From an uncultured Bacillota bacterium (GTDB lineage Bacteria > Bacillota_I > Bacilli_A > RF39 > UBA660): a stretch of DNA of 54,058 nt. The position numbers were made by a program, and so were the translations under genes. Shown piece by piece: positions 20,245 through 39,486 of the stretch; positions within the stretch are counted from its first letter, which is position 1; every line of letters starts with the position of its first letter. The stretch lies in contig CAMVLZ010000007.1 in NCBI GenBank assembly GCA_947168485.1, positions 1-54,058 of the forward strand, written 5' to 3'. The notes under the pieces are model-generated. The model ran no database searches, was not told the origin of the DNA, and worked only from the letters and a program-made list of their open reading frames with translations.

Positions 20245-20294
20245 ATTCTTCGTCCCTTCCTCTTATATATTATATCTTAACTTTTAAAAACTGT

Positions 20295-21098: not shown

Positions 21099-21111
21099 AA
21101 TTTTCTCCTTT

Positions 21112-23433
21112 TTATACTTTATAACATGATAGATATGTTGTTTTACTAGGATTATAAGTTTTCCACATATCTTTTGCTGAAGTAGCTGGATCCATCATAG
21201 TTATTTTATTTCCTTGTACTTGGTCTATAGCTACCCAGTGTTGACTATTAGGAGTTGCTCCTTTAACTTCTGCTATGATGTAATATCCTTTTCCTACTAA
21301 TTCTTTTATTTTAGATAGTTTTTCATCTTGTGTTTTTCCACTTACATCAACAGTTGTTACATATTTAAAGTCTGGTATTAATTCAGTTACCTTATTCCAC
21401 ATAATACCTCCATTACCAGAGAATCCTCCTATTTTATTAAGTGCAGTTACAAATGTTCCTGGATTAAAGTCTCCTGGTACTTTTGAAGTATCTACTCCAC
21501 TTCTCTTTATTTGCATTGCGATAGAAGTAATTGTACATCCTGAATGAGCAATATCAGTTGAAGAATTACCTAATGGAACACTTCCCCAAACTTTATTTGC
21601 CTGTTTCCAAGTAGTATAGTTTCCAGAAGCTGCTGTACCTACAGTTGAACAAGCAACTGATTGTGTACAAGATGATTGACTAATATCAGTAGCATTACTA
21701 TAAGTTGATAATAATATTTCTTTATAGTCTTTTCCACTATTAGCTAGACTATTAAATTTCTTTTGTGTTGTATCAGTATAAGTTGTATATACTACATAGC
21801 CTTGATCATTTAAAACTAATTGTCCTTCTACTTCTTTAGCATATGATCTATATTTATGATCTGAAGATAATGCTTTCTTATACAAAGTATATTCAGTACC
21901 ACTACGCATATTGCTACCATCTTGTGAACATCCTTTGTCTGGATCACAATATACTTGATCTTTAGTACAAGAAGCTGTTTCAATTATATAGTTGTCTCCT
22001 TCTTGTTTAATCTTTCCACCTATATCTGCATGTCTTCCTAAAATATAACTTCTAGCAGCAACTAATTGTGCTTTAAAAGCTTCTTCTGGTGCTCCTTCAT
22101 TTTCTGCATAAGCAACACCTAAAATATACTTTTCAAAGTCTACTAATTCTTCTCCAGACACTTCTTTATTTTTATTGTCACAATCCATAATTCTGACTTT
22201 TACTTTATTTAAATTTAGTTTTTCTTTTACATTTCCTTTACCACTTATATAGAATCCTTTTATTCCATATGTACATGAACTTGTAGAAGAATAATCACAA
22301 GTACCATTAGTTTTATTATAACCAATATAACTATAATAGTTATTAACATATTCAAATACTTGATCTGCTAGAATTTCATATTCTCCTTGTGATAAGTTTT
22401 CAAAGTATTTAGGAAATATATCATTAGCTAGATTTGTTTTTGTTTGTATCTCATCTCCAGCGATTGCTCTTTTTATTTTTCTTAGTTTTCCATTAGTAAA
22501 ATATTTATATGTATATGTACCATCTTTATCCATAATAATATGAACAGTTCCAGTTACAATTAGATATGGACTATCTACAGATGAAGTATATTCATCAGTT
22601 CCATCATCTCCAGTAACACCAATTACTCTTTGAATATAATCTCTAAATTCATCATTTGTTGAATTATATTGAGTATATCCAGTTGGTCCACCTGATGCTG
22701 TAGAAGTTGCTAAAGCATCTTCATATTTTGAATCTTCTTCAACAACATTTACAATCATAATTGCCATAAAAGATAGTGCAAATACTAATGGTAATCCAAA
22801 TAAAAGGGCTATTTTTACTGGATCTTTCATTATTACTTTTAAAACACCTTGAGTAATATCAAATCCACCATCAGATGATGAACCACTTTGTTTTCCACCT
22901 GATCCACTACTTGATTGGCTATTTTCTGATTTATTATCAGATTTATCTTGCCCTAATTTAGAAAGTGCACTTTCATCTGAAGAAGGAAGAGAACTATCTT
23001 GCCCTCCTCCTATATTTCCTTTATTGGCTGCTCCTGCGGCATTAGCACCTGAAGTTGGAGTAGCACCAGCAGCTCCACCTGTGCCTCCTGCTCCACCGGC
23101 TCCGCCTGCAGCACCATTATAGGTTTGTGCAGCTTTACCAATTTTATCACTTGCGCCACTTTCACTTAATTTATTTGAGGCGTCTTGTATTTTCTTTCCA
23201 GCTGGTGAATATTGGTTTGCTCTAGTCATTGCTTTTCCTAAGGCTTGTGTACTTTTTCCACCAGTTAATTTATCTGCTGCTTTAACTGCTGTACCTGCAG
23301 CCACAGCATAAGGGTTTTTGGTAGCTATGGCAACATCTGCAGCATTTTTAATATTCTTGGCATTGTTTTCATCATTTCTTTGTTTTTGAGATTTTACTTC
23401 ATTATCAGTGCCTCTATTTGCTTGATATGCCAT
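21112..23433 (-). CDS. SpoIID-domain plus C39-like peptidase-domain wall-remodelling protein of the T4SS locus
   Basis: A/G/S-rich cytoplasmic N-terminus, TM, VDFEKYILGVAYAENEGAPEEAFKAQLVAARSYILGRHA (SpoIID), C-terminal HSGCTITSIAMQI...GYYIIAEVKG...HWVAIDQVQGNKITMMDP (C39-like Cys/His/Asp). Confidence 0.85.
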   Translation of the reverse strand: MAYQANRGTDNEVKSQKQRNDENNAKNIKNAADVAIATKNPYAVAAGTAVKAADKLTGGKSTQALGKAMTRANQYSPAGKKIQDASNKLSESGASDKIGKAAQTYNGAAGGAGGAGGTGGAAGATPTSGANAAGAANKGNIGGGQDSSLPSSDESALSKLGQDKSDNKSENSQSSSGSGGKQSGSSSDGGFDITQGVLKVIMKDPVKIALLFGLPLVFALSFMAIMIVNVVEEDSKYEDALATSTASGGPTGYTQYNSTNDEFRDYIQRVIGVTGDDGTDEYTSSVDSPYLIVTGTVHIIMDKDGTYTYKYFTNGKLRKIKRAIAGDEIQTKTNLANDIFPKYFENLSQGEYEILADQVFEYVNNYYSYIGYNKTNGTCDYSSTSSCTYGIKGFYISGKGNVKEKLNLNKVKVRIMDCDNKNKEVSGEELVDFEKYILGVAYAENEGAPEEAFKAQLVAARSYILGRHADIGGKIKQEGDNYIIETASCTKDQVYCDPDKGCSQDGSNMRSGTEYTLYKKALSSDHKYRSYAKEVEGQLVLNDQGYVVYTTYTDTTQKKFNSLANSGKDYKEILLSTYSNATDISQSSCTQSVACSTVGTAASGNYTTWKQANKVWGSVPLGNSSTDIAHSGCTITSIAMQIKRSGVDTSKVPGDFNPGTFVTALNKIGGFSGNGGIMWNKVTELIPDFKYVTTVDVSGKTQDEKLSKIKELVGKGYYIIAEVKGATPNSQHWVAIDQVQGNKITMMDPATSAKDMWKTYNPSKTTYLSCYKV

Positions 23434-23456
23434 TTGCTCACCTTCTTTTTAAAGTT

Positions 23457-25250
23457 CTAGAAACCTCCTCCAGAACCAAATGATTCTAATTCTTCTTTAG
23501 TTACAGCAACATTTATTTGCATACGTTTATTACCACAAACAAATAATGCTTCACCTTGAGAATATCTCTTTATACCCTCTCTTTCACTTTCATTTAAGTC
23601 TATTAATAAACTTAAATCTTCAACTGCTTGTTTCTTTAATCCCATTACTAAGTAATAAGATGCATTATCAAATATTGCTTTACCATGCATTAATATTTGT
23701 TCATTAGCAACAAAGTCTGATGGTTGTTGTGTAATTAAAATTGTACCTGTATTATACTTTCTAGCACGACGTTGTACTTGTGATAAGAATTCTGCTCCTA
23801 AAGCATTTTTATCTCCTAATAATACGTGTGCTTCATCAACCATTAATACTGTATTAACATTAAAATCTAAACATAAACTCCATGCATATTTTAATACGTT
23901 AAAGAATAATGCATTTCTAATATTAGAATCAGAGTTCATTAACTCTTTAATATTAAATACCATAAAATCAGAATCTCTTCTTAATGTAGTCTTACCATCA
24001 AAGTAGAATTTTAATTCATTTACAATAGGTCTAACTTTTAATTCTAATCTTTCCATAATATCTTTTTCATGTGTTTGATCAGTCATAGCCATTAGACGTC
24101 CTTTGATAGTAGCATATACATCACTAAATGTTGGATAATCTTCTGATGTAAATCTAGAGAAATCTGTATTAAAATCTATTCCAAAACGTTTATATGTATC
24201 TTGTACTACTTCAGAAAACATTGTTAATACATCATCTTGCATAGATGGATCATAATATGTCATAAATGCTCTTAAGAATTGAAGTGTTCTTGTTAAAACT
24301 GTATAACCAAGTCCTTGTCTTATTTCTTCTTCATCAGCATCGATAACTACTTCTAATGGATTTATTAATCCAAATTCTCCACCTTTTCCTATATCAACAG
24401 TATCTCCTCCAAAAGATTGAGTCATTTCTCTTAACTCATCTTCTGGGTCGATTATTACTATTTGACAACCATTTCTAATATGAGTTCTAAGCATCAATTT
24501 AGCTGCAGTTGATTTACCTGAACCAGATGTACCTAAAATAATCATATTAGCATTATTTCTATTATTTTCTTTTCTTATCTTATATAAGAATTGATTGAAT
24601 AAAATAACTCCACCTGAGAAATCAACTCCTAATAATGTTGATAATCCAGGGTCTTTTACACTATCAAAGATGAATGGATACATAGCAGAAATTGTAATAC
24701 TTGGAATTGGTGTACCAATTCTTTCTTCAATATCTTGTTTTGGAAAGACTGGTAAAATTGATTTTAATACCTTTTCTTGTTCAAAACGTAGAGATACTGC
24801 TTTTAATTCCATAGCATCTAAATAGTTTTTAACATTAATCTTCTTTATTTCTAATTCTTCTTTAGAACCAGCTGTAATCATAATATGCATTTGAAAATCA
24901 AATATCTTTGCTTGAGAACCAGCTAACATTGATGTGAAGTATTCCAAACTTTCAGCATCTTGTCTAATACGTTCTCTTGCTGTATGATCACGTTCATTTT
25001 TATATTGTTCTCTTAATTCAGCAACTTGTTTATTTAACATCTTTGCCATTTCAGAGAATGGTACTGGAATATGTTTTACTACAACTTTAATTCCAGACAT
25101 ATTTGTTAATGATGATAAATATCCAGGCATTATATATTTTGGATATGAAACTACTGTTAAAATAGTAGCATAATGATCACTTATGAAGAAATCACTAGGT
25201 GAAAAACTTAATCCTTTTGGAGCAACTTGACTCTTAAAATTTAAACTCAT
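23457..25250 (-). CDS. VirB4-family T4SS ATPase (ATPase domain half)
   Basis: NMIILGTSGSGKSTAAKLMLRTHIRNGCQIVIIDPEDEL, NTVLMVDEAHVLLGDK, RARKYNTGTILITQQPSDF. Confidence 0.93.
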   Translation of the reverse strand: MSLNFKSQVAPKGLSFSPSDFFISDHYATILTVVSYPKYIMPGYLSSLTNMSGIKVVVKHIPVPFSEMAKMLNKQVAELREQYKNERDHTARERIRQDAESLEYFTSMLAGSQAKIFDFQMHIMITAGSKEELEIKKINVKNYLDAMELKAVSLRFEQEKVLKSILPVFPKQDIEERIGTPIPSITISAMYPFIFDSVKDPGLSTLLGVDFSGGVILFNQFLYKIRKENNRNNANMIILGTSGSGKSTAAKLMLRTHIRNGCQIVIIDPEDELREMTQSFGGDTVDIGKGGEFGLINPLEVVIDADEEEIRQGLGYTVLTRTLQFLRAFMTYYDPSMQDDVLTMFSEVVQDTYKRFGIDFNTDFSRFTSEDYPTFSDVYATIKGRLMAMTDQTHEKDIMERLELKVRPIVNELKFYFDGKTTLRRDSDFMVFNIKELMNSDSNIRNALFFNVLKYAWSLCLDFNVNTVLMVDEAHVLLGDKNALGAEFLSQVQRRARKYNTGTILITQQPSDFVANEQILMHGKAIFDNASYYLVMGLKKQAVEDLSLLIDLNESEREGIKRYSQGEALFVCGNKRMQINVAVTKEELESFGSGGGF

Positions 25251-25843
25251 AATGACATCACCGTTCCAAACTCAGTTTTAACTCCTCCATTTAAGAAGTT
25301 ATCTAAAATGACTCTTAAGTCTTCATTATTTACTTGTGATGCATTAAGTCCACATGTTGCTAAACCATTTATCATCAATCTTATTTTTTTATCTATTACA
25401 TCTTGATCTTTATCTTTAAATAAGAAGTAATACTCAGTATCTACAATATTATTTCTAATAAAATTATTACCCTTTTCTAAATCTTGAGCAATCAATTTTC
25501 TAATCGCAGGTACTTGAGTTTCATTATATAGAAGTTGTAATTGTGACATGTAGACACTTAAATCTACTGGTCTATCTGCTACAACTAACCAAAATTCAAA
25601 ATCAAGCATATTATAGAAATTCTTTAATCCAGTTAATACTCTATTTTGAGAATCCATATCTAAAATAAATATATTTCTAGGTGTAATTTTAACTCCGGTA
25701 ACTTTTAAATTACTTCTAGTGATAATACAATTATTTTGAATGCTTTTAACTGGTAACCAATCTTCTGTCCATTTAGAAGACTCTTGAACACTAGTCTTAC
25801 TAGCTGGAGCCTTATTTACGGATCCTTTTTTTACTTGTGCCAT
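25247..25843 (-). CDS. VirB4 N-terminal/TraC-like domain protein
   Basis: WTEDWLPVKSIQNNCIITRSNLKVTGVKITPRNIFILD...; overlaps the VirB4 ATPase start by 4 nt (ATGA). Confidence 0.7.
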   Translation of the reverse strand: MAQVKKGSVNKAPASKTSVQESSKWTEDWLPVKSIQNNCIITRSNLKVTGVKITPRNIFILDMDSQNRVLTGLKNFYNMLDFEFWLVVADRPVDLSVYMSQLQLLYNETQVPAIRKLIAQDLEKGNNFIRNNIVDTEYYFLFKDKDQDVIDKKIRLMINGLATCGLNASQVNNEDLRVILDNFLNGGVKTEFGTVMSL

Positions 25844-26138
25844 TAGTCACACACCAACCTCTCCAATAGTATTTTTGATTATGAGTTAAAAACTCATACA
25901 TTTCCATTATTATAGTTAAAATATTGTGATAATTAGGAATTGGAACTACCAAGAAGGCAGTTATTAAACCAGGAGCTAGTGATAATATTGTGAACAATAA
26001 ACTAGATTGTGGTACAAAAGCTAATAAAATTAATGTTATTAAAACTCCAGTACTAAATAGAATTAAGTCCATTGGTTTAAATAATCCCATTATCAGTTTT
26101 CCTTGTTTTGTATTTGCAGGTATCAAGTAATTATTCAT
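25812..26138 (-). CDS. PrgI/VirB3-like T4SS membrane protein
   Basis: 108 aa, two adjacent TMs, IPANTKQGKLIMGLFKPMDLILF ... HNQKYYWRGWCV, as in PrgI-family proteins preceding VirB4. Confidence 0.75.
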   Translation of the reverse strand: MNNYLIPANTKQGKLIMGLFKPMDLILFSTGVLITLILLAFVPQSSLLFTILSLAPGLITAFLVVPIPNYHNILTIIMEMYEFLTHNQKYYWRGWCVTNGTSKKRIRK

Positions 26139-26162
26139 CTAGTATCACACTCCTTTATTCTA

Positions 26163-28313
26163 TTATGGATGTGGTCCTCCTGGAGGTGGTCCGCCACCTG
26201 GATTACCGTTTCCTCCATTATGACCTCCAGCTATATTAACAAATGTTGTTTCATCGATAGCACCATCATAATCTTCATTATTTCTTTCATATTGATAATC
26301 TGCAGGATTTCTTGTAGGGTTACCGTTAGAATCGATTGCAACTTTTGCTCCAGTTTCTTCGATTGTTGTTGTAACAACCTTTTCAGGTTCTCTATAGTAA
26401 ATAAAGTCTTGTATGTCTCCTGCAAGTCCTTGATAATTATGTCTATGATATCTTTCAACGTCGCTAATTCTAGGTAAGACATTCAATGCTTCTCTTTCTT
26501 TCTTCATTCTGTCTACGTTGTCTTGAGAATCACCATATGTCTTAGCAGCAGCTTGATAAGCAGCTTTAGTTTGTTTAACTCTTTCTTTAGCTGCATTGTA
26601 TTTAGAAGTATATGCACTGTAAGCAGAATCAAGTGCTCCACCTGACAATCCAGTTTTAGCTGCATATTGTTGTTTAGACATTCTATTACCATCCATTTGA
26701 AGTCTAGATAATTCTGCATTAGCAGCATTCATGTCTGCCTCAGCTTGTTCCATATTAGCTTTATTAGCTTTGTTAACATATGAAGCTTTAGCCCAGTCTC
26801 TACTACCAAGACCCAATCTACTTGCTGCAGCTTCTCTATTTTGATAATCCAATCTATCTTGTAAGTAACCCATTGGACCTCCACGGGCTTGCTTATCACC
26901 AGTTCTAATTTTTGCCATGTTATCAGCAGACTGTCTCCAAGTGTCCATAAGTCCTGGAGCTTGTTTACCTTGTGCACCAGCTTCTACTTGTTCATTGAAT
27001 GCGTTCAATGCTCCAGCTGCCATTCCTCTAGCTCCACCAGATAATGAACCTAAACCACCCATTATAGTAGCAAGTCCTATATTTGAACCAAAAGATTTAA
27101 CTCCTAGTACATCTTTAATAAATTGTGGAGCTTGTTTTGCGAAGATGAATAAACCAATAATAATAAATATCATTGAGAATGCTCCTATAATTCCTCCACC
27201 TATATTAATAGTAATACCATTTATTAAGATATCTTGTACTAAGAATAATACAAAGAATACAATTGCTAAACGTATAAATAAATCTACATATGTACCTATA
27301 ACAGCTTTAGTCCAGTTAGAAAAAGCAGTATTGTCTTTTGATTGAGGTCCCATATAAGCAATAATTGGAATTGGTGCGATTAATCTTAATACAGATAGTT
27401 TAATAGCACGTACTGCTATATCAACAGTAAATCCTAATAATATTACTGTCATTATTATCGCAACTATTGTTCCTAAAATTGGAACATAGTTAAATGCATA
27501 TCTTGCTTTTCCAGAATACCATAAGTTATGTCCTGTAATTTTATTAAATGCTTCTGATATAAATCCATTACTACATGTCGTTGTAAGTAGCGCCGATGAA
27601 GTTAAATCAGATGGATCAGCATCTATTTTAGTATATGTTTGTAATACACTATTTTCTATTGGACACATCCAGTTGTTTGAATCCGTTATATCATCAGTAT
27701 GATTTTCTCTTAAGTTAATTCTTACAAATATACGAAGGATTGTTGCGGAAAAGACATTGGCCATCGTACTTAGTCTTTGTCCTTCTAAATCAGTTTGTTC
27801 AGTACTATCTGGATCAGCATTTGATGTAGATACATCGGTTGTACCTAGTACTATCCTACCAATAGTATTATTTGCTAAAATACGTTTTTGTAATGAATAA
27901 AGTGTTCCGAATACTAATCCATTGTTATTTAATTCTCTAGAAAATTCATTACTAGCATTAGGTATATTAATAGGAGTTAATGCAGCTAATAGTAGTAAAC
28001 CTATTACTACTCTTTTTATTACTGCAGAAAATCCTTCTTGTTTATCATTTGCTTTATCTGGATCAATTATTGTTTGTAAAACGGTAATAGATAATCTAAA
28101 CACCATAAAAACTCCAAGTATTAATTGGACTCTACCATAGAAACTTCTAATAGTTGCATTACTAAAGAATTCAGCAGTTGCAACATTAAAGAAGATCATA
28201 TACATAAACTTCATAACTGAAAAAGAAATCCAGTCTAATTTACTGAAAATGATTCTAATTAAGTTATGACCTACGCCAGGCTGATCTTGATTAACCTCGA
28301 AGTCTAAAATCAT
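26163..28313 (-). CDS. VirB6/TrbL-like polytopic membrane protein
   Basis: Multiple TMs followed by Ala/Gln-rich coiled coil and PG-rich tail; LRLIAPIPIIAYMGPQSKDNTAFSNWTKAVIGTYVDLFIRLAIVFFV. Confidence 0.8.
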   Translation of the reverse strand: MILDFEVNQDQPGVGHNLIRIIFSKLDWISFSVMKFMYMIFFNVATAEFFSNATIRSFYGRVQLILGVFMVFRLSITVLQTIIDPDKANDKQEGFSAVIKRVVIGLLLLAALTPINIPNASNEFSRELNNNGLVFGTLYSLQKRILANNTIGRIVLGTTDVSTSNADPDSTEQTDLEGQRLSTMANVFSATILRIFVRINLRENHTDDITDSNNWMCPIENSVLQTYTKIDADPSDLTSSALLTTTCSNGFISEAFNKITGHNLWYSGKARYAFNYVPILGTIVAIIMTVILLGFTVDIAVRAIKLSVLRLIAPIPIIAYMGPQSKDNTAFSNWTKAVIGTYVDLFIRLAIVFFVLFLVQDILINGITINIGGGIIGAFSMIFIIIGLFIFAKQAPQFIKDVLGVKSFGSNIGLATIMGGLGSLSGGARGMAAGALNAFNEQVEAGAQGKQAPGLMDTWRQSADNMAKIRTGDKQARGGPMGYLQDRLDYQNREAAASRLGLGSRDWAKASYVNKANKANMEQAEADMNAANAELSRLQMDGNRMSKQQYAAKTGLSGGALDSAYSAYTSKYNAAKERVKQTKAAYQAAAKTYGDSQDNVDRMKKEREALNVLPRISDVERYHRHNYQGLAGDIQDFIYYREPEKVVTTTIEETGAKVAIDSNGNPTRNPADYQYERNNEDYDGAIDETTFVNIAGGHNGGNGNPGGGPPPGGPHP

Positions 28314-28339
28314 CTAATCCCTTCTTTCGATTTATGCCA

Positions 28340-28813
28340 TTACTTTAATAATCCGCAATCTGATACAATTCCAAATACTTGGAATAATAATTGAGTAATA
28401 ATTGGTATCATAAACAATAATCCTGTCATTATCAATCTTGTTTTTAAATGTGTAGTTGCTTTTTTCATTGTATCATCATCACTATTAATAATAGCTTTTG
28501 TAAATTCAATTCCACTTAAAACTATTACAGCAAGTGGACCTAATATTTTAATATAATCTAGGATTTTATTCAATAGCCAAGCAACTGAATTTTGATCATT
28601 AATATCACCTAAAAGTGAATTACAAGTTTCAGAATCTTGTTTATATACACTATTGTTTCCTTTAAAACTATTAATATATGAATTTACATCTTGTGAATTA
28701 TTAGATGTTAATACATATGGTGCATCAATTGTAGTTTTTGCATATGTATTTTCAGGAATAATAACAAAAAGACTTGTTATTAATAAAATTATTATTATAA
28801 TTGTTTTTTTCAT
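28340..28813 (-). CDS. VirB2/TrbC-like protein with signal peptide
   Basis: Signal peptide, then two TMs: ILGPLAVIVLSGIEFTKAIINSDDDTMKKATTHLKTRLIMTGLLFMIPIITQLLF. Confidence 0.65.
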   Translation of the reverse strand: MKKTIIIIILLITSLFVIIPENTYAKTTIDAPYVLTSNNSQDVNSYINSFKGNNSVYKQDSETCNSLLGDINDQNSVAWLLNKILDYIKILGPLAVIVLSGIEFTKAIINSDDDTMKKATTHLKTRLIMTGLLFMIPIITQLLFQVFGIVSDCGLLK

Positions 28814-28895
28814 AAAATCACATCACTTGTTCTATCATAATTAGTATAGCAAATCAATACAAAAATATCAATTATCTTTGATTTTTTTACAAAAA

Positions 28896-28919
28896 AAAAT
28901 AGTAAATAAATACTATTTT
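28896..28919 (-). terminator. Intra-locus intrinsic terminator after the 113-aa VirB2-like gene
   Basis: aaaatagta-aataaa-tactatttt stem; minus strand continues TTTTTTTTTGT. Confidence 0.7.
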
Positions 28920-29254
28920 ATTTGTTTCCAGCATGAGAACCACGCATTTGTATCTCCAACACTTGATGTTGCAACTACTTGCATTAATAATGAAACTAAG
29001 AAGACAATTAAGAATACTAAAGCTGCATAGATAAATCTCTTGATTAATTTTCCTTGAGCTTCTTTAATTTCTTTTTCATCACTTGCGATAACTGCTTTAC
29101 CTAAATCAATAACTCCAAATAAGATTAGAGCAACTGGAATTATGATATAGAACATTGGAAGTAATGCTTTCTTTACTATTCTAACAAATGGTTCAAGTCC
29201 CATACAATCTGATGAAATATCAGTGTTTGTTCCTATTAAAAAATACTTGTTCAT
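28913..29254 (-). CDS. VirB2-like two-TM protein
   Basis: LLPMFYIIIPVALILFGVIDLGKAVIASDEKEIKEAQGKLIKRFIYAALVFLIVFLVSLLMQVV. Confidence 0.65.
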   Translation of the reverse strand: MNKYFLIGTNTDISSDCMGLEPFVRIVKKALLPMFYIIIPVALILFGVIDLGKAVIASDEKEIKEAQGKLIKRFIYAALVFLIVFLVSLLMQVVATSSVGDTNAWFSCWKQIK

Positions 29255-29304
29255 AAAATCTCTCCTCTACTTAATTATATTTTTTTATTAATAATTTGTC
29301 AATA

Positions 29305-30330
29305 TCAGCGTCTAAATAGACCAAATATTTTTTTGTCACCATCATTAGGTTTTTGAATAAGATTTATTCTTCCTAAAAAGTCTACAATGATTTCATTATT
29401 TTTTCTGTCATTTAATGGTGGTATATTATAAAATATTTTCAATCCTGATTCATATTCTAAATCATTAACATCTTTATTTGATAATAAACTTTTATTTAAT
29501 ATTACCATTTTATTTTTTAATTTCTCTAATATCAATCTATTCTTATCAATCATTTTATTCAATCGAACAATTGATGGTTCAACTAAATATATTATTGAAT
29601 TACACATAGATGTATCAGTACTTTTATTTAGATCAATTATAATGTATTTAGCATTAGTTTGACCTATAACTTGTCGTGCATTACTTGCACTTGTTGATAA
29701 CAAGTTTCTTTGTTTAAAGTACTTAAAATCACTCTTATCTAATTCTAGTCCTAATACTTTGTCTGAACCAAATATTCTTGATAGTTCTTTTACCATCATA
29801 TAAGTTAAAGTAGTTGCTCCAGCATGATCAGTAGCATTTCTTATACCAAAGACTACTGTAGTTGAACTTATTGTTTGAGCTTCAGTAGTAACTGGTTGGA
29901 CTGCTGCTGAAACTGTTACAGCTTCATTCGTTGATTCAGCTCCTGTACCTCCCATCTTTTGAATATGGGATACATCATTATATGTATTAGATTTTTTTAA
30001 TAAATATTTTATACCTTCTAAGTTAGTAGTAAAATTATAGATTCCAATAGATATTAAATTAGATAAGAAGTTTGCTTTACAAAAGTCACTTCCTTCTGGT
30101 AAAAATAATATTATTTTATCAGTTTCTAATCCATCAGCAAGTGCTTGAAAATTACGTATATCATTATTTCCATCTATTGCTGTAATATCAATAATCATCT
30201 TATTGTAGAAAAAATTTCTAAACATATCTACTATTTCTTTAGTGGAATAAGTTCCAGAGATATGTTTAATAATATCTATATCTAGGGATGATAATTCTTT
30301 ATCTAATGTATTTGTAATCAAAATATTCAT
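29305..30330 (-). CDS. TadZ/CpaE-like MinD-superfamily protein with degenerate P-loop
   Basis: N-terminal receiver-like region; VFGIRNATDHAGATTLTYMMVKELSRIFGSDKVLGLELDKSDF; gene order adjacent to Tad genes. Confidence 0.75.
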   Translation of the reverse strand: MNILITNTLDKELSSLDIDIIKHISGTYSTKEIVDMFRNFFYNKMIIDITAIDGNNDIRNFQALADGLETDKIILFLPEGSDFCKANFLSNLISIGIYNFTTNLEGIKYLLKKSNTYNDVSHIQKMGGTGAESTNEAVTVSAAVQPVTTEAQTISSTTVVFGIRNATDHAGATTLTYMMVKELSRIFGSDKVLGLELDKSDFKYFKQRNLLSTSASNARQVIGQTNAKYIIIDLNKSTDTSMCNSIIYLVEPSIVRLNKMIDKNRLILEKLKNKMVILNKSLLSNKDVNDLEYESGLKIFYNIPPLNDRKNNEIIVDFLGRINLIQKPNDGDKKIFGLFRR

Positions 30331-30352
30331 TATTTCATCCCCTTTTTATATT

Positions 30353-30841
30353 TTATGTTCTCTTCTTTATAGTTTTTGTTTCTCCTGTTACTTGAAATAT
30401 TGACATATGTGGCATCAAATTTCTTATAACTGGAATATCAATAGTTACTTGTGTTAATACTTGATAATAAGCTCTTGTATCTCCATCTGTTTGAGTACCT
30501 CCACTTTTACCAGTACCTTTTTCAACTATTTTTTCATTTATACAAAAACCTCTATCACTATTGCAACATACCTTCCCTGTTGCACAAAAATTACCTGGAT
30601 TAACTGCTATTCTAGTGTTATATCCTATATCATTCATGTAACTTAAGATTTTTTTTGTGCAAACGTTTGATGGATCGCTAGGAGAACAATTACCTTCATA
30701 TTGTTCAACTAAATCTATTATTCTATTTTTAACTTTGAAGGCTTTTACATAACTAACATTAAAAGCCATGTAACCTGAAACTAATACCATAAATACTGCA
30801 ATAATAACAATATTTACAGTACCTCCTATAGCATCTCTCAT
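30353..30841 (-). CDS. TadE-like pseudopilin, Cys-rich
   Basis: Short N-terminus then TM NIVIIAVFMVLVSGYMAFNVSYVKAFKVKNRII; six Cys; C-terminal VTIDIPVIRNLMPHMSIFQVTGETK. Confidence 0.65.
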   Translation of the reverse strand: MRDAIGGTVNIVIIAVFMVLVSGYMAFNVSYVKAFKVKNRIIDLVEQYEGNCSPSDPSNVCTKKILSYMNDIGYNTRIAVNPGNFCATGKVCCNSDRGFCINEKIVEKGTGKSGGTQTDGDTRAYYQVLTQVTIDIPVIRNLMPHMSIFQVTGETKTIKKRT

Positions 30842-30857
30842 TTAAGCCTCCTATAAA

Positions 30858-31007
30858 TTAATCTCCGTGACCAGTTATGCCTTCCCATTGCTTATTAATA
30901 TTAATTTTAATTTGTGGCCATAATACTGCAGTAAAGAATGCTATAACTAAACCAATTGCTATTAAAGTAATAACTGTTAAATTTAATTCTCCAGTAGCTG
31001 CTTTCAA
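30858..31007 (-). CDS. Flp-like Tad pilin (TTG start; not in ORF track)
   Basis: Minus-strand AGGAGG-8nt-TTG; MKAATGELNLTVITLIAIGLVIAFFTAVLWPQIKININKQWEGITGHGD*, 49 aa: short leader, G-E-type processing site, one TM; located between TadC and TadE-like genes. Confidence 0.8.
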   Translation of the reverse strand: MKAATGELNLTVITLIAIGLVIAFFTAVLWPQIKININKQWEGITGHGD

Positions 31008-31067
31008 TTTATTCACCTCCTTATTTTATTAATATAATTATATCAATTTATCTGATTTAATACAATC

Positions 31068-31868
31068 TTAAAAACTAAACATCATCATCATTGTCACTAA
31101 AATTAACAACATAACTGAAACTCCAGTAACAATTAACATTATCATAGTTTGACTTTCCATATGATTAAGTCTTTCTTTATATTTAGTTTCTCTTGCTTTA
31201 TTTTGTAATGATGAAATTGATCTAGAGAACATCATCAAACGTTCTTGTTTTTTCTCTTGACCACCTATACCTAAACGATATAGCAATCTCATCATTCTCA
31301 TTGAATCTCTAACAGGATATGTATTAGCAAATTCCATATATGGATCTACTGATGAATCTCCTGAATTAATTCTATCTATCATTCTTCTTAATCCTGGTTT
31401 AAATATATCTGGAGCATCTTCTATTGATTTACCTAGTGCTACAGGTACAGTATAGTGTTGGATTAAGATTTCTAAACTCTTTAAATAGTATGGCAACATT
31501 ATATCTATTTCATGTAAATGTCTCTTATAGAAACCTTTTAATGATATATATTGTTGTTTAAATATAAATACTGCTATAGCAGCTGAAAATACTATATTTA
31601 ATATTATATTTTGTCCTCCACCAATAGATAAGACTAATACAATAAGAAATGTTGCTATAGCTGTTGTACATCTTTTCATATAGATTTGATCTACATCTAG
31701 TTCATCTCCATATTTAGCATATAATAAGAATTCATAATCTTCTTCTTTAAAAACTTCTAAGTATTTTTCATTATCAGCAATAAACTTTTCTTTATCTATA
31801 GTATTATTATAGAAAAAGATATACATAAGTATTGCTCCTATTATTAGTATCTCCATATTACTCAGCAC
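31068..31868 (-). CDS. TadC-like (GspF-type) membrane protein
   Basis: Membrane protein with KRHLHEIDIMLPYYLKSLEILIQHYTVPVALGKSIEDAP... and C-terminal TMs; paired with a TadB-like gene. Confidence 0.78.
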   Translation of the reverse strand: MLSNMEILIIGAILMYIFFYNNTIDKEKFIADNEKYLEVFKEEDYEFLLYAKYGDELDVDQIYMKRCTTAIATFLIVLVLSIGGGQNIILNIVFSAAIAVFIFKQQYISLKGFYKRHLHEIDIMLPYYLKSLEILIQHYTVPVALGKSIEDAPDIFKPGLRRMIDRINSGDSSVDPYMEFANTYPVRDSMRMMRLLYRLGIGGQEKKQERLMMFSRSISSLQNKARETKYKERLNHMESQTMIMLIVTGVSVMLLILVTMMMMFSF

Positions 31869-32766
31869 CTACATTCTCATTATAATATTTTTCTCCTTTT
31901 AGTAAGAAGTAAGTATTGATTATTAATACTCCATGTAATATTAAATCTATATACCATAATTGTAATAATTTAATGTAAGTTTCTCTTCCTACTAAGTATT
32001 GGACTAACATAACTAATAGGTATAACATTATACCGAATTGTAAGAAGTTTCTATGGAAAGATGCTCTTTCAATTCTATCTCGATATACACTTTCTATTAA
32101 CATATCTATATCCATTTGCATGTTATCTAAAGAATCAGCTGAGTTTCTTGCTCCTTCTTTAGTAATTTGTAAGAATAATTGGTGCATATTCTTAACAATA
32201 TAATATGGATATAGTTGAGTCATATAAGCAAGTGCTTCATCGATAGTACCATTATCATATGATAAATCTATCATATGCTGTACATCTGATTTTACAGGGT
32301 CTTCTAATAATCCTGAATTTAATACACCTTCTAATGATTTAACAAAAGATTGTGTAGTAGCAAATTCCATAATTACGTTAGATGTATATACTTGTATTTG
32401 CTCAAATATGAATTCTGAATATATTTTTTTTGATCTTAAATAAGAAAGATAAGGAACTATGAATGAAGAAATAATTACATAAACTATACTTATAGCTAAA
32501 TTATAGAAGTATAAATATGTAATGATTCCAGCAAAACCACCTATTGCAACTAATTGAATAGTATATTGACGTGGTGTATAATCTTGCCCTAGTTCTTTTG
32601 TTTTTTCTCTAACTGCTCTAAATGAATATGGAGTAATTTTATCCATAACTCCTGCTAAACCTTCAGAGAAAAATTTACTAACATTTTGTCCTTGGTATAC
32701 TCTATATAAATATATTCCAACAACTATTACAATAATTAGTAAAAGTTCTTCTATATACATATGCAT
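31858..32766 (-). CDS. TadB-like (GspF-type) membrane protein
   Basis: IYSEFIFEQIQVYTSNVIMEFATTQSFVKSLEGVLNSGLLEDPVKSDVQHMIDLSYDNGTIDEALAYM; overlaps tadC start by 11 nt. Confidence 0.78.
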   Translation of the reverse strand: MHMYIEELLLIIVIVVGIYLYRVYQGQNVSKFFSEGLAGVMDKITPYSFRAVREKTKELGQDYTPRQYTIQLVAIGGFAGIITYLYFYNLAISIVYVIISSFIVPYLSYLRSKKIYSEFIFEQIQVYTSNVIMEFATTQSFVKSLEGVLNSGLLEDPVKSDVQHMIDLSYDNGTIDEALAYMTQLYPYYIVKNMHQLFLQITKEGARNSADSLDNMQMDIDMLIESVYRDRIERASFHRNFLQFGIMLYLLVMLVQYLVGRETYIKLLQLWYIDLILHGVLIINTYFLLKGEKYYNENVGAE

Positions 32767-32778
32767 TCCCCTTTCTTA

Positions 32779-34140
32779 TTAATTTAATTTTTCTAATTGA
32801 GGTGCAGCTTGTGTTTGCACTGGTTGTACCGCAGGTGGTGTTTGAACAACTGCAGGTACTGCTTGAATCACAGGTGTTGGACTCTCAGCAACTTGTGGTT
32901 GAGGTTGAACTACTTGTTGTGGAGCAGCTTGAGCTGCTTCTGCTGGTACTTCTTTTTGTTCAGTTTCTTGAGGTGTAACTTGCTTTTGTTCTTGTTCTTG
33001 TGATTCTTCTTTTGGTTGATCATCTTTAAATTCACTACCATCATGAAATTCCTCAAAATGATGTTCTTTATAAGGCATTTCTTCAGGTAAATGAGCAATT
33101 ATATCTGAAATATCAATATTTTGATTTTCAATATACTCTATTAAGTGATCACTTGGTCTTATCATTATTCCATTATCATCTTGTGTCTTTCTATATATAG
33201 TTCTTGATTTAGGTTCATTATTATCATCTACATAGAACTCAGTAACTTCATCTATTTCACGATGGAATTTACCATATTTTTTACTATAAAACGCTTTAAT
33301 ATGAATACCTAATTGGATATAACGATAAATTGTATTTAAGAATTGTCCAACTTCTAAATCTGTCTCCATCAATGAATAAAGACGATATGGTATAGAAGCT
33401 GCTTTATCAGCATGGATTGTTGATAAGATATTGTGTCCTGAAGATATTGAGTTACGTACAGCAGAAACAGCTTCTGCAGAACGAACCTCTGATAGTAAAA
33501 TCCATTTTGGATTTTGACGCATGCAGGTAACTAATACATCAGTATATGATGCAACATTATTAGTTTTCATTGCAACTATATCTCTTTGTGGGAATATCTT
33601 ATCTAAGTGCAATTCTAATGTATCTTCAATAGTTATTATTTTTTCTTTTGGATCAGTATGAGATGCTAAATATTTAACAAACTCTGTTTTACCTGAACCA
33701 GTTTCTCCAGCAACCATAATATTACAGTGACCTAAAACACATTTCATTAGGAAGTCATGAATATCATTAGTAAAATAATCATCTTGAAGTAATTTTTCTT
33801 TCTTCAATCTAATCTTAGCTGGAGTTTTACGTATAACTAATGCAATTCCATTTGTAGCAATTGATGAATGTACAAAGTTAAGACGTAATTCAGCAGATTC
33901 AGCATCTAAAAAAGGTTTAGCATTGTTAAATGTTGTTCCCATAACATTTGAACATTGAAATGCTAAACGTTCAACAAATTCAGGTGTAGCACCTTCTATT
34001 TGTACATGCATTGATCCTTGTTGTAATGAACGAATCCATATTTGACCACCATTACAATAAGAGATATCTGTAATATCATCATTTTCTAATAATGGTTTAA
34101 AAGGACCAAAGTCTAATTTGTCAAATATGCTTTCATTCAT
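32779..34140 (-). CDS. TadA/CpaF/VirB11-family secretion ATPase with P/Q-rich C-terminal tail
   Basis: NIMVAGETGSGKTEFVKYLASHTDPKEKIITIEDTLELHL, RQNPKWILLSEVRSAEAVSAVRNSISSGHNILSTIHAD. Confidence 0.93.
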   Translation of the reverse strand: MNESIFDKLDFGPFKPLLENDDITDISYCNGGQIWIRSLQQGSMHVQIEGATPEFVERLAFQCSNVMGTTFNNAKPFLDAESAELRLNFVHSSIATNGIALVIRKTPAKIRLKKEKLLQDDYFTNDIHDFLMKCVLGHCNIMVAGETGSGKTEFVKYLASHTDPKEKIITIEDTLELHLDKIFPQRDIVAMKTNNVASYTDVLVTCMRQNPKWILLSEVRSAEAVSAVRNSISSGHNILSTIHADKAASIPYRLYSLMETDLEVGQFLNTIYRYIQLGIHIKAFYSKKYGKFHREIDEVTEFYVDDNNEPKSRTIYRKTQDDNGIMIRPSDHLIEYIENQNIDISDIIAHLPEEMPYKEHHFEEFHDGSEFKDDQPKEESQEQEQKQVTPQETEQKEVPAEAAQAAPQQVVQPQPQVAESPTPVIQAVPAVVQTPPAVQPVQTQAAPQLEKLN

Positions 34141-34173
34141 CGTTTCACTTCCCTTTTTTATTCATTTATTATT

Positions 34174-34965
34174 CTATTCTTCATCTTCATCAATAATGCT
34201 TCCTGAATTAGTAACACTATCGATAAATTTAACTAATTTTTGACTTGATATCTTAATTCCTTCTGGAGTCTCTTCTTGTGAGTTATTTGTAGGAACAGGT
34301 ATAACTTCAGATCTATAACTATCTAATGATTCTGCTTTTTTCAATATGTTGAAATAATTTTGAGGTACTGCAAAAATCATCATAGTTGGTTTTTTCTCTT
34401 CATCTGTATCAGAGAAAACTGATTTACCATTATCATCTTTAACTGCTAAGACTTTAATGTTTTCTATTAATCTACCTACATACATTTGACTACTAGATTT
34501 CTCATCTTTAGAAATTTTTAGGTAAATATCAATATAATTTCCTGGATATATAGAGTTACCATATGTAGTATTTGTATCAACTTTCATATTGTATAATACA
34601 TATCCTTTTTCATATGACATTAAATCTCCAGCAGGTAAGTTTTCTTTTTCAACTACTGTTCTTTCAAAGAATAAACTTCCTTTAGGAATAACTGTATCAG
34701 CATTTGAATACTTATCAATAACTTGACCAGCTTCAGTAAGAACCCCGTCAGTAATCATATTTGGGGAAACTTTCATACTTCCTACCATATCTTCAGTAAT
34801 TTGTGTACCAGGTCCAATTTGCTTAATTGCATAAGGTACAGTTACTGGATTTGTAGCTTGATTTACACGCCAGTTATAAGCAAAATATAGTACTGCAATA
34901 ACTATTACTAGTCCAATGACAGTTACTGTATTTTTATTAGCCAATATTTTTTTAATACCGTTCAT
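34174..34965 (-). CDS. CpaB/RcpC-like SAF-domain protein
   Basis: TM then VPYAIKQIGPGTQITEDMVGSMKV...VIPKGSLFFERTVV...GNSIYPGNYIDIYLKIS (SAF domain). Confidence 0.8.
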   Translation of the reverse strand: MNGIKKILANKNTVTVIGLVIVIAVLYFAYNWRVNQATNPVTVPYAIKQIGPGTQITEDMVGSMKVSPNMITDGVLTEAGQVIDKYSNADTVIPKGSLFFERTVVEKENLPAGDLMSYEKGYVLYNMKVDTNTTYGNSIYPGNYIDIYLKISKDEKSSSQMYVGRLIENIKVLAVKDDNGKSVFSDTDEEKKPTMMIFAVPQNYFNILKKAESLDSYRSEVIPVPTNNSQEETPEGIKISSQKLVKFIDSVTNSGSIIDEDEE

Positions 34966-34979
34966 TCTTTTTCCCCTTT

Positions 34980-35495
34980 CTATTTAACTTTAGCATCTAA
35001 AATTATTTGATTACCATTTGCATTAACAGGTTTCCCAATAAAACTATGAGGGTTATTGTACTCAAATTTTAATGAAGGTGATTTAGCATTTCTAGTTTCA
35101 ACAAGTTGACTAATTGATGTAGTAATATCAGAATGCTCAGCTTCATCAGTTCCTGCTTTTACACCTAGTATTGTTGTAGAATCTACTTTTATATTTACCA
35201 TTGGAGGTACTTCATTTAATCCGTAGAATCCTATTTTATATTCTCTATTATCTGCTACATTGCTAGCAAATCTTTTTATAAATGTTTCCATAAATATTTC
35301 TTTATCAATTCTTGGAATTCCATGAATAGATGTGAAGGTCTCATCCAAGGCCTCTGTCATAGCGGCCTCGGATGTTTCCTTTACTAAATAATAATCTACT
35401 TCACTTCCTGTTGAATAATTTGAAATAACATTAATAATCAATAGTGCTAGTGAGCCTAATAATATAATTCCAACTCCTAAAATACTCTTGTTCAT
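34980..35495 (-). CDS. Single-TM pseudopilin-like hypothetical protein
   Basis: N-terminal KSILGVGIILLGSLALLIINVISNY TM followed by an extracellular domain; position within the Tad block. Confidence 0.5.
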   Translation of the reverse strand: MNKSILGVGIILLGSLALLIINVISNYSTGSEVDYYLVKETSEAAMTEALDETFTSIHGIPRIDKEIFMETFIKRFASNVADNREYKIGFYGLNEVPPMVNIKVDSTTILGVKAGTDEAEHSDITTSISQLVETRNAKSPSLKFEYNNPHSFIGKPVNANGNQIILDAKVK

Positions 35496-35498
35496 ATA

Positions 35499-38400
35499 TT
35501 ACTTACCTCCTATTACTTTACATGTGCTGTTATTACATTGTGTAAATTTCTTAGTTGTTCCTCTTAATTTTCTTAAGAAAGAACTTGTATAGTGAGAAAC
35601 ACCATTTTCATATTTAATCTTTTCTTCGTTAATTGTGTAATCTTTTTCATTTCTTAAACTACGTAATGTATTAGTATCTAATATGAATTCGAAGTCTAAG
35701 TTCTTTGCACTAAATTGATCTGTTGTTTGAATATGTTTTAATAATGTCTCTGGATTTTGGTTATATCCTCCAACTACATCATTAAATCCATTTAATTTAG
35801 CATCTGCAGTCCAGTTAAATCCAATTTGTCTAGTATTCTTATATTGTACTCTCTTAGAAGTAGAAGCGTTTTGTAAGAACGGATCTGCTGTATCTACACT
35901 TCTTATGTCACCTTCACCACTTCCTCCACAGTTTGGTGGGCATTCAGTAGTTGTTGGTGGGTCACCAGGTACATCTGGTCCATCTGGTACATTCAATGCA
36001 TAGAAGCATGATATCTTAAATGTCCATCTAAATAATCCAAATGTTCTTGCTTCACCATAGATATTATATCCTTCATATGAAGTCTTTGTAACTGATGGTT
36101 TGTCATAAGCTTGTCCACCAAATTTCCAAGCTCCTTGTGGTTTATAGTTATTAGCTAAAGCACTGATATAATTACGTGCCCATTCACCATTTGTAGTTGA
36201 TAGACTAGTTGGAATACATACTTTTCCTGGAACAAAATGATATCTTGTACCTGGGTTGTTTCCATATTTTCTTGAATTTCCTTTTGTTGGTAACCAAGTA
36301 CCTGGGAAAGTCCATTCAGTTAAATACCATCTTCTAGTAGAAGCATCTGCATAACATCCACCATATCTAATAATAACTTCTGGTGTTCTATTTAATGCTG
36401 GATTAGATTTATCTTCACTATATACTCTATCTTTATCTTTAGTTAATGGGAATTGAACTTCTGTTACTTCTGTTTCTCCTTGTTTCTTATACTTAAAGTT
36501 AATTGTATAAGTAGCTTGAGTTTGTGTACAAGAAGTTTTTCCTACACATTTCTTATCTACTTGATCTTTGAATAATTTTACATTGTTTTTATAATCTGCA
36601 ACTTTTAGATCATCAACTGTACATATTTGTTCAGCAACATATTTTTGTTGTGCTTTATTCCATACATACATCTTAGGACATCTATATTTCTTTTGAGCAA
36701 AGTGATTAGATACATTGTAATTGAAATATACATAGAATTTTTGATCCTTACCCTTACATTTTACAGTGTACCAATGACAATTATCTCCACATTGTCTACC
36801 ATTGTATTGTGCTCTAATGAATCCTCTTCCATTGTCATCAGATGCATATCTATAGTTAAACCATTTTGTATTATAATGTGCGAAATAATACCAAATTCCG
36901 ATATGACCAGTTCCTGCAGCATGTTTTGTAGAGCCTTTTGTTCCTATTCCACCATTATTATTGATATATGCTTTAGTATTAGTACCTTTTGTTGTACACC
37001 AATCATATCCACTTGATCCATAATAATGTTGACCAGGTAAACATTTTTTACCTAAAGTATCTGTTTCATTACCATTTTTATCATTATAATAATATTTCCA
37101 AATTTTTATATTTTTTCTTTCAGAATCTTTAATATTTTTTAATATTGGTGCATCAGAATTATTATATGCTACTTGCTCTTGTAATGTAGAACCAGAATTT
37201 GATTCTCCATATACTTCATCATAACATTTATTACTACAACTTTCTGTATATTTTCCACCATCACATTCATTAACACAAGCATCAAAATCATCATTAGGTC
37301 CAGCTTGTCTTAATCCGTGTCCACATATAGGTGCTAAATAACATGTTTTGATTTTGCTTGGTTTAGTAGGTTTTTGTACATCTTTATCAGGGTTAGCTGT
37401 ACAATTTGTAACACTACTTACTTTCATTCTATATTCAAAACACATTCCTGCATCTACTTGAACAGGTGGACCATATTCAACTTTAACAATTTCTGTACAT
37501 GTTTTTTTACATTTGAATGATGCGTCTTCTTTAACAACTGTTCTTGTTTTTTTCTTTTTTATTTTCATTAGGTAATGGTACTTATAGTATATAGAGATTT
37601 TATCAGTATGTTGCCAATATCCTCTATAATACTTAGTGTTGTTTGAATCATAATAATATTGAGTGATTTTACCAGTTTCTGAATCAATTAATGATTGTCT
37701 ATTATATTTTTCTATTGCTTCTATATCAGCACTAGTTAATTTATAATTACAACCCATTGCTATACTTTTACTTTTACCAAATTTATCTTTATCTTTTTTC
37801 TGTGCAGCTTCTTTAGTTTCTCCAGTAAAATATAGTGTGTAAGTTGAATTTTTCTTTGTACTTAATTCACCTTTTTTATCTGCTTTTGGTTCATTTGGAT
37901 GTGCTGCATAAAATGCATTTTGATATGTTTGGAAATTTTGTTTATTTCCTAAACTTCCAACTGTTTCCCATCCTTCACCTTTTGCTGATGATAAAATTGA
38001 AGGGTCAGTTTGTTGAAATTCTTGTGGATCATCTGCTTCAGCTGTCATTGTTGCATTATATGATTCAATACTACTTGAATCAAAAGTCGTTGTTCCTGTT
38101 AGCTGTAAATTTTCACCATCTAATGATGCTGATTCTGATGCTCCTGCATTTCCATTATCTTCAAGATCATCTATATTGTACACTATATAGTTTTTATCTT
38201 TACTACATACTGTGTTGCCATAAACAATATCTTTAGCAGGATAAAGTTTAATTTTATTTCCACTTGGATAAATTCTCATAGGGTGATCTTTTCCTTTATC
38301 ATCTTTTGAGCCTTTATAACAAGTATATGTATCATTCTTTTTAACTCCTTTTAATTTAACAACAAATTTATTTCCACCTGCCCAAGTAAAATGATTGTTT

Positions 38401-38702
38401 ATACGTTTTTGAGGAGCACATCCCATAACTAAATGATTATCTTCATTGTAATACATTCCAATATAGAAATCTCCAAGGATGTCCTTACATTTATTATCTT
38501 GGCCATGCACTGTATAATAGTTGGCTACTATTTGGTCTGCTGCTACTTTCTTTGCAGTTGACTTTGTAGATAGAACATATTTATTTTGTTCTTTTTGCCA
38601 ATAAAATACCCCTACGAATGCAATAATAATAAGAACTAAAAATATTCCAAATAATTTATTGCTTCTTTTCTTTTTCTTATTAGACTTCATTTTCTCCATC
38701 AC
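35499..38702 (-). CDS. Large Cys-rich exported/surface protein
   Basis: 1067 aa, N-terminal signal-anchor KKKKRSNKLFGIFLVLIIIAFVGVFYW, about 30 Cys, Tyr/Asn/Lys-rich; between sortase and Tad genes. Confidence 0.8.
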   Translation of the reverse strand: MMEKMKSNKKKKRSNKLFGIFLVLIIIAFVGVFYWQKEQNKYVLSTKSTAKKVAADQIVANYYTVHGQDNKCKDILGDFYIGMYYNEDNHLVMGCAPQKRINNHFTWAGGNKFVVKLKGVKKNDTYTCYKGSKDDKGKDHPMRIYPSGNKIKLYPAKDIVYGNTVCSKDKNYIVYNIDDLEDNGNAGASESASLDGENLQLTGTTTFDSSSIESYNATMTAEADDPQEFQQTDPSILSSAKGEGWETVGSLGNKQNFQTYQNAFYAAHPNEPKADKKGELSTKKNSTYTLYFTGETKEAAQKKDKDKFGKSKSIAMGCNYKLTSADIEAIEKYNRQSLIDSETGKITQYYYDSNNTKYYRGYWQHTDKISIYYKYHYLMKIKKKKTRTVVKEDASFKCKKTCTEIVKVEYGPPVQVDAGMCFEYRMKVSSVTNCTANPDKDVQKPTKPSKIKTCYLAPICGHGLRQAGPNDDFDACVNECDGGKYTESCSNKCYDEVYGESNSGSTLQEQVAYNNSDAPILKNIKDSERKNIKIWKYYYNDKNGNETDTLGKKCLPGQHYYGSSGYDWCTTKGTNTKAYINNNGGIGTKGSTKHAAGTGHIGIWYYFAHYNTKWFNYRYASDDNGRGFIRAQYNGRQCGDNCHWYTVKCKGKDQKFYVYFNYNVSNHFAQKKYRCPKMYVWNKAQQKYVAEQICTVDDLKVADYKNNVKLFKDQVDKKCVGKTSCTQTQATYTINFKYKKQGETEVTEVQFPLTKDKDRVYSEDKSNPALNRTPEVIIRYGGCYADASTRRWYLTEWTFPGTWLPTKGNSRKYGNNPGTRYHFVPGKVCIPTSLSTTNGEWARNYISALANNYKPQGAWKFGGQAYDKPSVTKTSYEGYNIYGEARTFGLFRWTFKISCFYALNVPDGPDVPGDPPTTTECPPNCGGSGEGDIRSVDTADPFLQNASTSKRVQYKNTRQIGFNWTADAKLNGFNDVVGGYNQNPETLLKHIQTTDQFSAKNLDFEFILDTNTLRSLRNEKDYTINEEKIKYENGVSHYTSSFLRKLRGTTKKFTQCNNSTCKVIGGK

Positions 38703-39486
38703 CTTTCATTATCTTTAATATTTTTTTATAATTATCTGTTTTTTTAACAGTATAATTCTTTGCTTTTTCCCCTATTCTTATCATTCTTGCATCCACAACA
38801 AGAGCTGACGATGTGTCAGGCCCAAAAAATCTTGTACATGTTATTAAAGAGATAAGATTATCTTTTCCATCTACTTTTACATTATATTTATATAAACTAT
38901 CTTTCTTTACTTTGTTTGCATATTTTACTATCTCATTATCATTATATGTCTTTTCAATGAGAGTTTCAACATTTTTATATGAATCATACATTCTAACAGC
39001 ATATATTTTATATAAATAATTCTTACCATCTATTGTATATTGAATATATTTATTCTTTTTGGCAAAATCATAATATACAAATGACATTAATGGCTCAAAT
39101 CTAGTAAATCTTTTATCATTCATCCTCGGATGTGTTGATAAATTTAATATATTGTGACCCATTATATTAACTTTATTAAATAATTCTTCTTCTCTAATTA
39201 GGTTATATGCAAAACTATCTTTTTTATCAGATTCTTTCCTAGGATCATATCCATGTTCATAACCAATGATTGGATAATCTATTTTTGTTCCTTGAACTCT
39301 AATCCAACCTATTGTTCTAAAATGACCTGCATCTTTTTTCTTTTCTTCTTTTACATTTGTAGTTCTATCTTCAATTTTATATATTGTTCTATTAGTAATT
39401 ATTATAATAATTCCAATTACTAATAATACTAAAAATAAGAATATTATGTATTTTTTCTTTTGTTTTTTTCTCTTATTTTTTTTCAT
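38680..39486 (-). CDS. Class B-like sortase
   Basis: IGWIRVQGTKIDYPIIGYEHGYD, NIMGHNI (His), ISLITCTRFFGPDTSSALVVDARMI (catalytic Cys, Arg). Confidence 0.88.
   Translation of the reverse strand: MKKNKRKKQKKKYIIFLFLVLLVIGIIIIITNRTIYKIEDRTTNVKEEKKKDAGHFRTIGWIRVQGTKIDYPIIGYEHGYDPRKESDKKDSFAYNLIREEELFNKVNIMGHNILNLSTHPRMNDKRFTRFEPLMSFVYYDFAKKNKYIQYTIDGKNYLYKIYAVRMYDSYKNVETLIEKTYNDNEIVKYANKVKKDSLYKYNVKVDGKDNLISLITCTRFFGPDTSSALVVDARMIRIGEKAKNYTVKKTDNYKKILKIMKGDGENEV

What the first reader, a model, noticed from the sequence alone, without database searches (positions are those of the whole stretch)
30858..31007. Overlooked 49-aa Flp-like pilin gene with TTG start
Between tadC and the TadE-like gene the minus strand has AGGAGG, 8-nt spacing and TTG, then MKAATGELNLTVITLIAIGLVIAFFTAVLWPQIKININKQWEGITGHGD*. 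It has the Flp size, a very short leader ending in G before E, and one TM. It is absent from the supplied track because of its start codon and length. It is the likely major Tad pilin and would otherwise make the Tad set look pilin-less.
Basis: partly seen in the sequence, partly recalled or inferred. Interest (0 to 1): 0.72.

Follow-up and report, generated by a model that had tools for sequence, protein, structure and literature searches.

The report
Tad pilin gene apparently lacking leader
A small overlooked gene between tadC and the TadE-like gene is real and conserved in hundreds of uncultured gut Bacilli, and is most likely the main subunit of their Tad pilus, but it does not carry the cleavable leader that such subunits normally have.

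Summary
The ORF is real: 30858-31007 (-), TTG start, AGGAGG 8 nt upstream, 49 aa. It has homologues in 26 of 60 sampled relatives, 380 or more matching stretches in GTDB genomes, an unchanged place (tadC - pilin x1-2 - TadE-like x1-2 - tadZ) and strong protein-level selection (pN/pS about 0.2). No Pfam or NCBIfam family covers it. It is the only Flp-sized candidate found at the Tad locus, and no canonical Flp was found elsewhere in this genome. Major Tad pilin is the best reading.

None of 32 homologues, and none of 36 TadE-like neighbours, fits the prepilin rule G|xxxxE, while 11 of 11 canonical Flp-like genes elsewhere in relatives do. A second family has an equally overlooked ORF at the same place, MK[AIMS]FFEEYGL..., in register with mature Flp (xxxxEYGL) and preceded only by Met-Lys. 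Starts are fixed by immediate upstream stops, and residues 2-6 are the best-conserved block. I favour a leaderless, uncleaved Flp-type pilin (about 0.5). Cleavage after G6 by the genome's PilD remains possible (about 0.28). No experiment exists.

The parts
30858..31007 (-). 49-aa Flp-type pilin candidate (TTG start)
   Evidence: conserved frame, start and place in one bacterial family; no Pfam or NCBIfam match
31016..31021 (-). Shine-Dalgarno AGGAGG, 8 nt before TTG
   Evidence: sequence; comparable purine-rich sites before nearly all homologues
30353..30841 (-). TadE-like minor pilin (MRDAIGG..., also without prepilin motif)
   Evidence: place; predicted helix 2-47 plus small beta domain, pLDDT 87; no Pfam hit; 0 of 36 homologues fit the prepilin rule
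29305..30330 (-). tadZ/CpaE-like gene
   Evidence: place and size only; no Pfam hit
31068..31850 (-). tadC (platform protein)
   Evidence: conserved order; f1 tadC profile finds the tadC-position gene in cpaB-tadA-tadB-tadC loci of another family, E down to 1e-31
31858..32766 (-). tadB (platform protein)
   Evidence: conserved order
32779..34140 (-). tadA ATPase
   Evidence: PF00437 E=3e-27
34174..34965 (-). cpaB/rcpC
   Evidence: PF16976 E=2e-9
34980..35495 (-). DUF5411 protein, constant first gene of the tad order
   Evidence: PF17424 E=4e-38; order

Best explanation
The ORF encodes the major (Flp-type) pilin of a chromosomal Tad locus. It belongs to a lineage-restricted family that is made almost at mature length: Met-Lys, a short conserved segment ending at Glu7 (the counterpart of mature Glu5), then one uncharged helix of about 26 residues and a short outer tail. 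It would insert in the membrane N-in/C-out, held by Lys2, and be extracted and polymerised by TadA/TadB/TadC behind a TadE-like tip, without removal of a conventional leader; Met1/Lys2 and Glu7 would make the core contacts that the processed N-terminus and Glu5 make in other pili. Shown here: the gene, its conservation, its place, the fixed start, and the absence of the prepilin motif in it and in its TadE-like neighbour. Inferred: that it is the major subunit, that it stays uncleaved, and how it assembles.
For: Conserved frame and place. Prepilin rule met by 0 of 32 homologues and 0 of 36 TadE-like proteins but by 11 of 11 stand-alone Flp-like genes of relatives. Starts fixed by upstream stops. 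A second family has MK[AIMS]FFEEYG... at the same slot; its profile's best hit in the whole PDB is the Caulobacter Tad pilin 8u1k with E7 on mature E5, best register mature residue 1 on residue 3, and 45 residues after Met-Lys in the commonest copies, the length of mature PilA. The two families align in register from M1 (P=8e-5). Residues 2-6 are the most conserved block, unlike a leader. No tadV at the locus. No canonical Flp elsewhere in this genome.
Against: The PDB match is weak (E=0.21). For this family alone the register is undecided. G6 is nearly invariant in both the pilin and the TadE-like protein, as a cut site would be. A PilD-type peptidase is present elsewhere in the genome. AlphaFold starts the pilin helix only near residue 10. 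Nothing shows that a filament is made.
Confidence: 0.5

Rival explanations
1. Major Tad pilin with a real six-residue leader (MKAATG) removed after G6 by the genome's PilD acting in trans, leaving Glu at +1.
For: K2 and G6 are nearly invariant in the pilin and likewise K/R2 and G6 in the TadE-like protein; a PF01478 peptidase is present; sharing of peptidases between systems is documented (PMC6668835).
Against: No Glu/Asp at +5 in any homologue; syntenic homologues of the second family lack G6, and one lacks any G/A/S there; residues 2-6 are conserved like mature sequence.
Confidence: 0.28
2. A minor or accessory small membrane protein of the Tad machine (adaptor or platform partner) and not the filament subunit; the subunit would be the TadE-like protein or a gene elsewhere.
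For: Imam et al. propose TadE-like proteins as subunits of tad loci that lack Flp (PMC3244431); no profile match to known pilins.
Against: Size, single helix and EYGL core in the second family; duplication in several genera, as for flp genes.
Confidence: 0.15
3. A pilin or accessory piece of the adjoining type IV secretion genes (VirB2-like) and not of the Tad genes.
For: VirB2-like, TrbL, VirB4 and VirD4 genes follow in the same cluster.
Against: The gene keeps its place in Tad loci without T4SS genes nearby, in this family and in the second one; separate T4SS_pilin-like genes exist; one TM segment instead of two.
Confidence: 0.05
4. A chance ORF, not a gene.
For: Short, TTG start, no family match.
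Against: Conserved frame, Shine-Dalgarno sequence, start and place in dozens of genera; pN/pS about 0.2.
Confidence: 0.01

Closest known systems
Flp/Fap pilins of Tad pili (PF04964; C. crescentus PilA, PDB 8u1k)
   Same: Small, single helix, in a tad locus; the second family shares the EYGL core in register with the mature protein
   Different: No leader with G/A before xxxxE; below the Pfam cut-off; Tyr+6 absent in this family
Gram-positive Flp-like pilins and 'no Flp' tad loci of Imam et al. 2011 (PMC3244431)
   Same: tad loci where motif tools find no prepilin
   Different: Those Clostridial loci keep tadV; here a specific small ORF is proposed as subunit and no tadV lies at the locus
Type IVa / N_methyl prepilins (PF07963)
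   Same: The short MKxxxG start resembles their leader (own knowledge)
   Different: No GFTLxE core; the genome has separate true N_methyl proteins (16 matches), and its PilD lies next to PilC
Archaeal type IV pilin N-terminus (PF07790)
   Same: Five members give weak hits, best 0.027
   Different: Not significant; no archaeal machinery

Membership tests
Flp/Fap type IVc pilin | Small all-helical protein (about 50-80 aa) | tested here: met
   49 aa; homologues 49-90 aa; one helix predicted
Flp/Fap type IVc pilin | Encoded with tadA, tadB, tadC, cpaB | tested here: met
Flp/Fap type IVc pilin | Leader ending in G/A/S, then xxxx and Glu/Asp at +5 | tested here: not met
   0 of 32 homologues; 11 of 11 stand-alone Flp-like controls pass
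Flp/Fap type IVc pilin | Tyr at +6 and Flp motif | tested here: not met
   Residue 8 is L, A, T or V in this family; Y8 only in the second family
Flp/Fap type IVc pilin | PF04964 score above the curated cut-off | tested here: not met
   no hit for the window protein; the PF04964 genome search finds only other loci
Flp/Fap type IVc pilin | Cleavage by TadV/PilD and polymerisation into a pilus | not testable with these tools
   no tadV at the locus; PilD elsewhere
Type IVa N_methyl pilin | GFTLxE core, PF07963 | tested here: not met
   no hit
T4SS pilin (VirB2/TrbC) | PF04956 or PF18895 match and two TM segments | tested here: not met
   neither family listed for the 32 members among the 25 shown; one uncharged segment only

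The most novel reading that the evidence does not exclude
A branch of Tad systems in Bacilli (this family and the second family, f19) builds its filament from pilins translated without a leader peptide, so that neither a TadV-type peptidase nor a processed N-terminus is needed; this would break the rule that type IV filament subunits are cleaved prepilins.
Probability: 0.4. Interest if true: 0.8.

Novelty: new variant of a known kind. Interest (0 to 1): 0.55.

Why it matters
Cleavage of a leader by a prepilin peptidase is treated as a defining step of type IV filaments. In 2011 some Gram-positive tad loci were reported without any gene bearing the prepilin motif, which left their subunit unknown (PMC3244431). 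The ORFs found here, at the same slot in two bacterial families, offer a concrete candidate subunit for loci of that sort and a clear prediction (an uncut N-terminus), and they show why motif-based tools and length filters miss them.

Tried and rejected
Genomes that keep the pilin but show no PF01478 peptidase (G115, G017, genus of G523) looked like natural tests of peptidase independence, but they still carry canonical N_methyl pilins and one has a weak peptidase hit, so a missing or diverged peptidase is the likelier cause. An orphan TadV-sized peptidase exists in one f19 genus, so cleavage in trans cannot be excluded there. hhalign against the GQALVEY class aligned only the hydrophobic stretch and did not fix the register; the ungapped register test was undecided for the window's own family. 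Fold search with the TadE-like model found nothing at E<=0.001. The pilin model, a lone helix, was not searched because any helix would match. PF04964 as a finder gave only stand-alone genes and weak noise. Whole-genome scripts were not possible.

Full report
OBSERVATION. The minus strand at 31007-30858 reads TTG...TAA and encodes MKAATGELNLTVITLIAIGLVIAFFTAVLWPQIKININKQWEGITGHGD, with AGGAGG at 31021-31016, 8 nt before the TTG. A protein search of 60 related genomes found it in 26 (own included), all of one family (f1), down to E=1e-17 besides the own copy. A profile of 32 members found 33 of 38 sampled family members (one only weakly) and essentially none of the other genomes of the class. 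A scan of one genome per GTDB species gave at least 380 stretches that encode a relative; the 80 returned are uncultured MAGs, mostly titled Bacilli, Bacillales, Erysipelotrichaceae or Tenericutes, many from gut or rumen.

Over 1335 pairs of homologues the mean proportion of synonymous change is 0.51 against 0.10 for non-synonymous change, with pN<pS in 1334; the +1 frame has no such bias. The start is fixed: it falls on the same codon in relatives (ATG in 29 of 31, GTG in 2), and in 16 of 31 at most one open codon precedes it before an upstream stop. The gene is real.

SURROUNDINGS. In the 25 loci read at length the order is DUF5411 - cpaB - tadA - tadB - tadC - [this gene, one or two copies] - [TadE-like, one or two copies] - tadZ-like, as far as the contigs reach (a few are cut or have insertions), followed in many by VirB2-like, TrbL/VirB6, VirB3, VirB4 and VirD4 genes. 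tadA and cpaB are supported by Pfam (PF00437 3e-27; PF16976 2e-9). tadB, tadC, tadZ and the TadE-like gene have no meaningful Pfam hit and are named by order, size and model. The TadE-like protein is predicted as one helix from residue 2 to 47 plus a small beta domain (pLDDT 87), the outline of a pilin, although no solved structure matches. No tadV lies at the loci. Where found, the PF01478 peptidase lies elsewhere; in this genome it sits beside pilC on another contig.

IS IT AN FLP PILIN? Size, single helix, place and company fit. Pfam and NCBIfam give nothing credible. The published prepilin rule ([GAS], four uncharged residues, [DE], 14 uncharged residues; PMC3244431) is met by 0 of 32 homologues and 0 of 36 TadE-like neighbours, but by 11 of 11 stand-alone Flp-like genes (KGQALVEY...) that occur away from the tad locus in other members of the family. 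That stand-alone gene was not found in this genome (assembly about 92% complete).

LEADER OR NO LEADER. To decide the register I looked at the nearest tad loci outside the family. A TadC profile found a second family (f19) with a bare cpaB-tadA-tadB-tadC-TadE-like locus. Between tadC and the TadE-like gene is a gap of about 150-170 nt in most of them, and in it lies an ORF of 47-54 aa with a strong Shine-Dalgarno sequence. Twenty-two copies from a wider search all read MK[AIMS]FFEEYG..., some with a stop immediately before the start.

EEYGL is the core of mature Flp pilins (C. crescentus PilA: ATAIEYGL after a 14-residue signal, mature length 45; its Glu and Tyr hold the filament core, PMC11067988). 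The f19 profile's best hit among 177,635 PDB sequences is that pilin, 8u1k, with E7 on mature E5 (E=0.21). The best ungapped register against PilA puts mature residue 1 on residue 3 (score 24.5 against 8.4 for the next). Against the GQALVEY class the best register is one residue earlier, so Glu6 instead of Glu7 may be the Glu5 counterpart in f19; either way only one or two residues precede the mature start. Without Met-Lys several f19 copies are exactly 45 residues. One copy (MKIFFEE) has no G, A or S before the glutamates, so no recognised prepilin peptidase site exists. The f19 and f1 profiles align in register from M1, E7 on E7, to the shared tryptophan near residue 40 (P=8e-5).

In f1, residues 2-6 are as conserved as residues 7-12 (3.8 and 3.7 bits) and more so than residues 13-30 (2.8 bits); in the canonical class the residues before the Gly are less conserved than those after it. 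All this favours a pilin translated nearly at mature length, with Met-Lys in place of the leader.

WHAT SPEAKS AGAINST. In f1 G6 is almost invariant in both the pilin and the TadE-like protein, which is what a cut site would show, and M-K-x-x-x-G resembles a type IVa leader (own knowledge). The genome's PilD could act in trans, and such sharing is documented (PMC6668835). For f1 alone the register against canonical Flp is not decided. AlphaFold starts the pilin helix only near residue 10. I therefore put about 0.5 on leaderless and 0.28 on a cut after G6.

VERDICT. A real, overlooked, lineage-restricted Tad pilin gene. It works like an Flp pilin as far as sequence can tell, but fails the leader/Glu+5 test and the profile test, so it is not filed as a PF04964 member. 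Novelty: new variant of a known kind.

Noticed in passing
window 17962-35495: The Tad genes run straight into type IV secretion genes (VirD4 PF02534 1e-55, VirB4-like ATPase, TrbL/VirB6, VirB2-like T4SS_pilin, a SpoIID-domain protein) in one chromosomal cluster between housekeeping genes, with no tRNA found; the joint order recurs in many members of the family, while others have the Tad part alone.
   Followed up: partly
L192, L194-L198 (gap between tadC and the TadE-like gene): In a second family (f19) the same slot holds an easily missed 47-54 aa ORF, MK[AI]FFEEYG..., in one genus starting at ATA or an upstream GTG.
   Followed up: yes
L055-L066: About half of the sampled members of the family carry a stand-alone canonical Flp-like gene (KGQALVEY...) away from the tad locus; none in this genome.
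   Followed up: partly
L033-L037, L040: Several genera have two tandem pilin copies with Cys-containing C-terminal tails; two second copies have Ser instead of Gly6.
   Followed up: no
window 34980-35495: The DUF5411 protein at the head of the tad order often begins MKES..., like the MKEA/MREA starts of the pilin and TadE-like protein; three unlike membrane proteins of one cluster share this start.
   Followed up: no
window 38680-39486 and 35499-38702: A sortase-domain protein (PF04203) next to a 1067-aa Cys-rich protein upstream of the tad genes.
   Followed up: no
window 46973-47890: A T4SS_pilin-like membrane segment fused to an NlpC/P60 peptidase domain, away from the main cluster.
   Followed up: no
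own genome, other contigs: Sixteen N_methyl prepilin starts, several in open frames of 700-900 codons, an unusually large prepilin set for a 1.26-Mb genome.
   Followed up: no
L238, L239: An orphan TadV-sized peptidase (about 136 aa) lies away from any tad gene in one f19 genus.
   Followed up: partly
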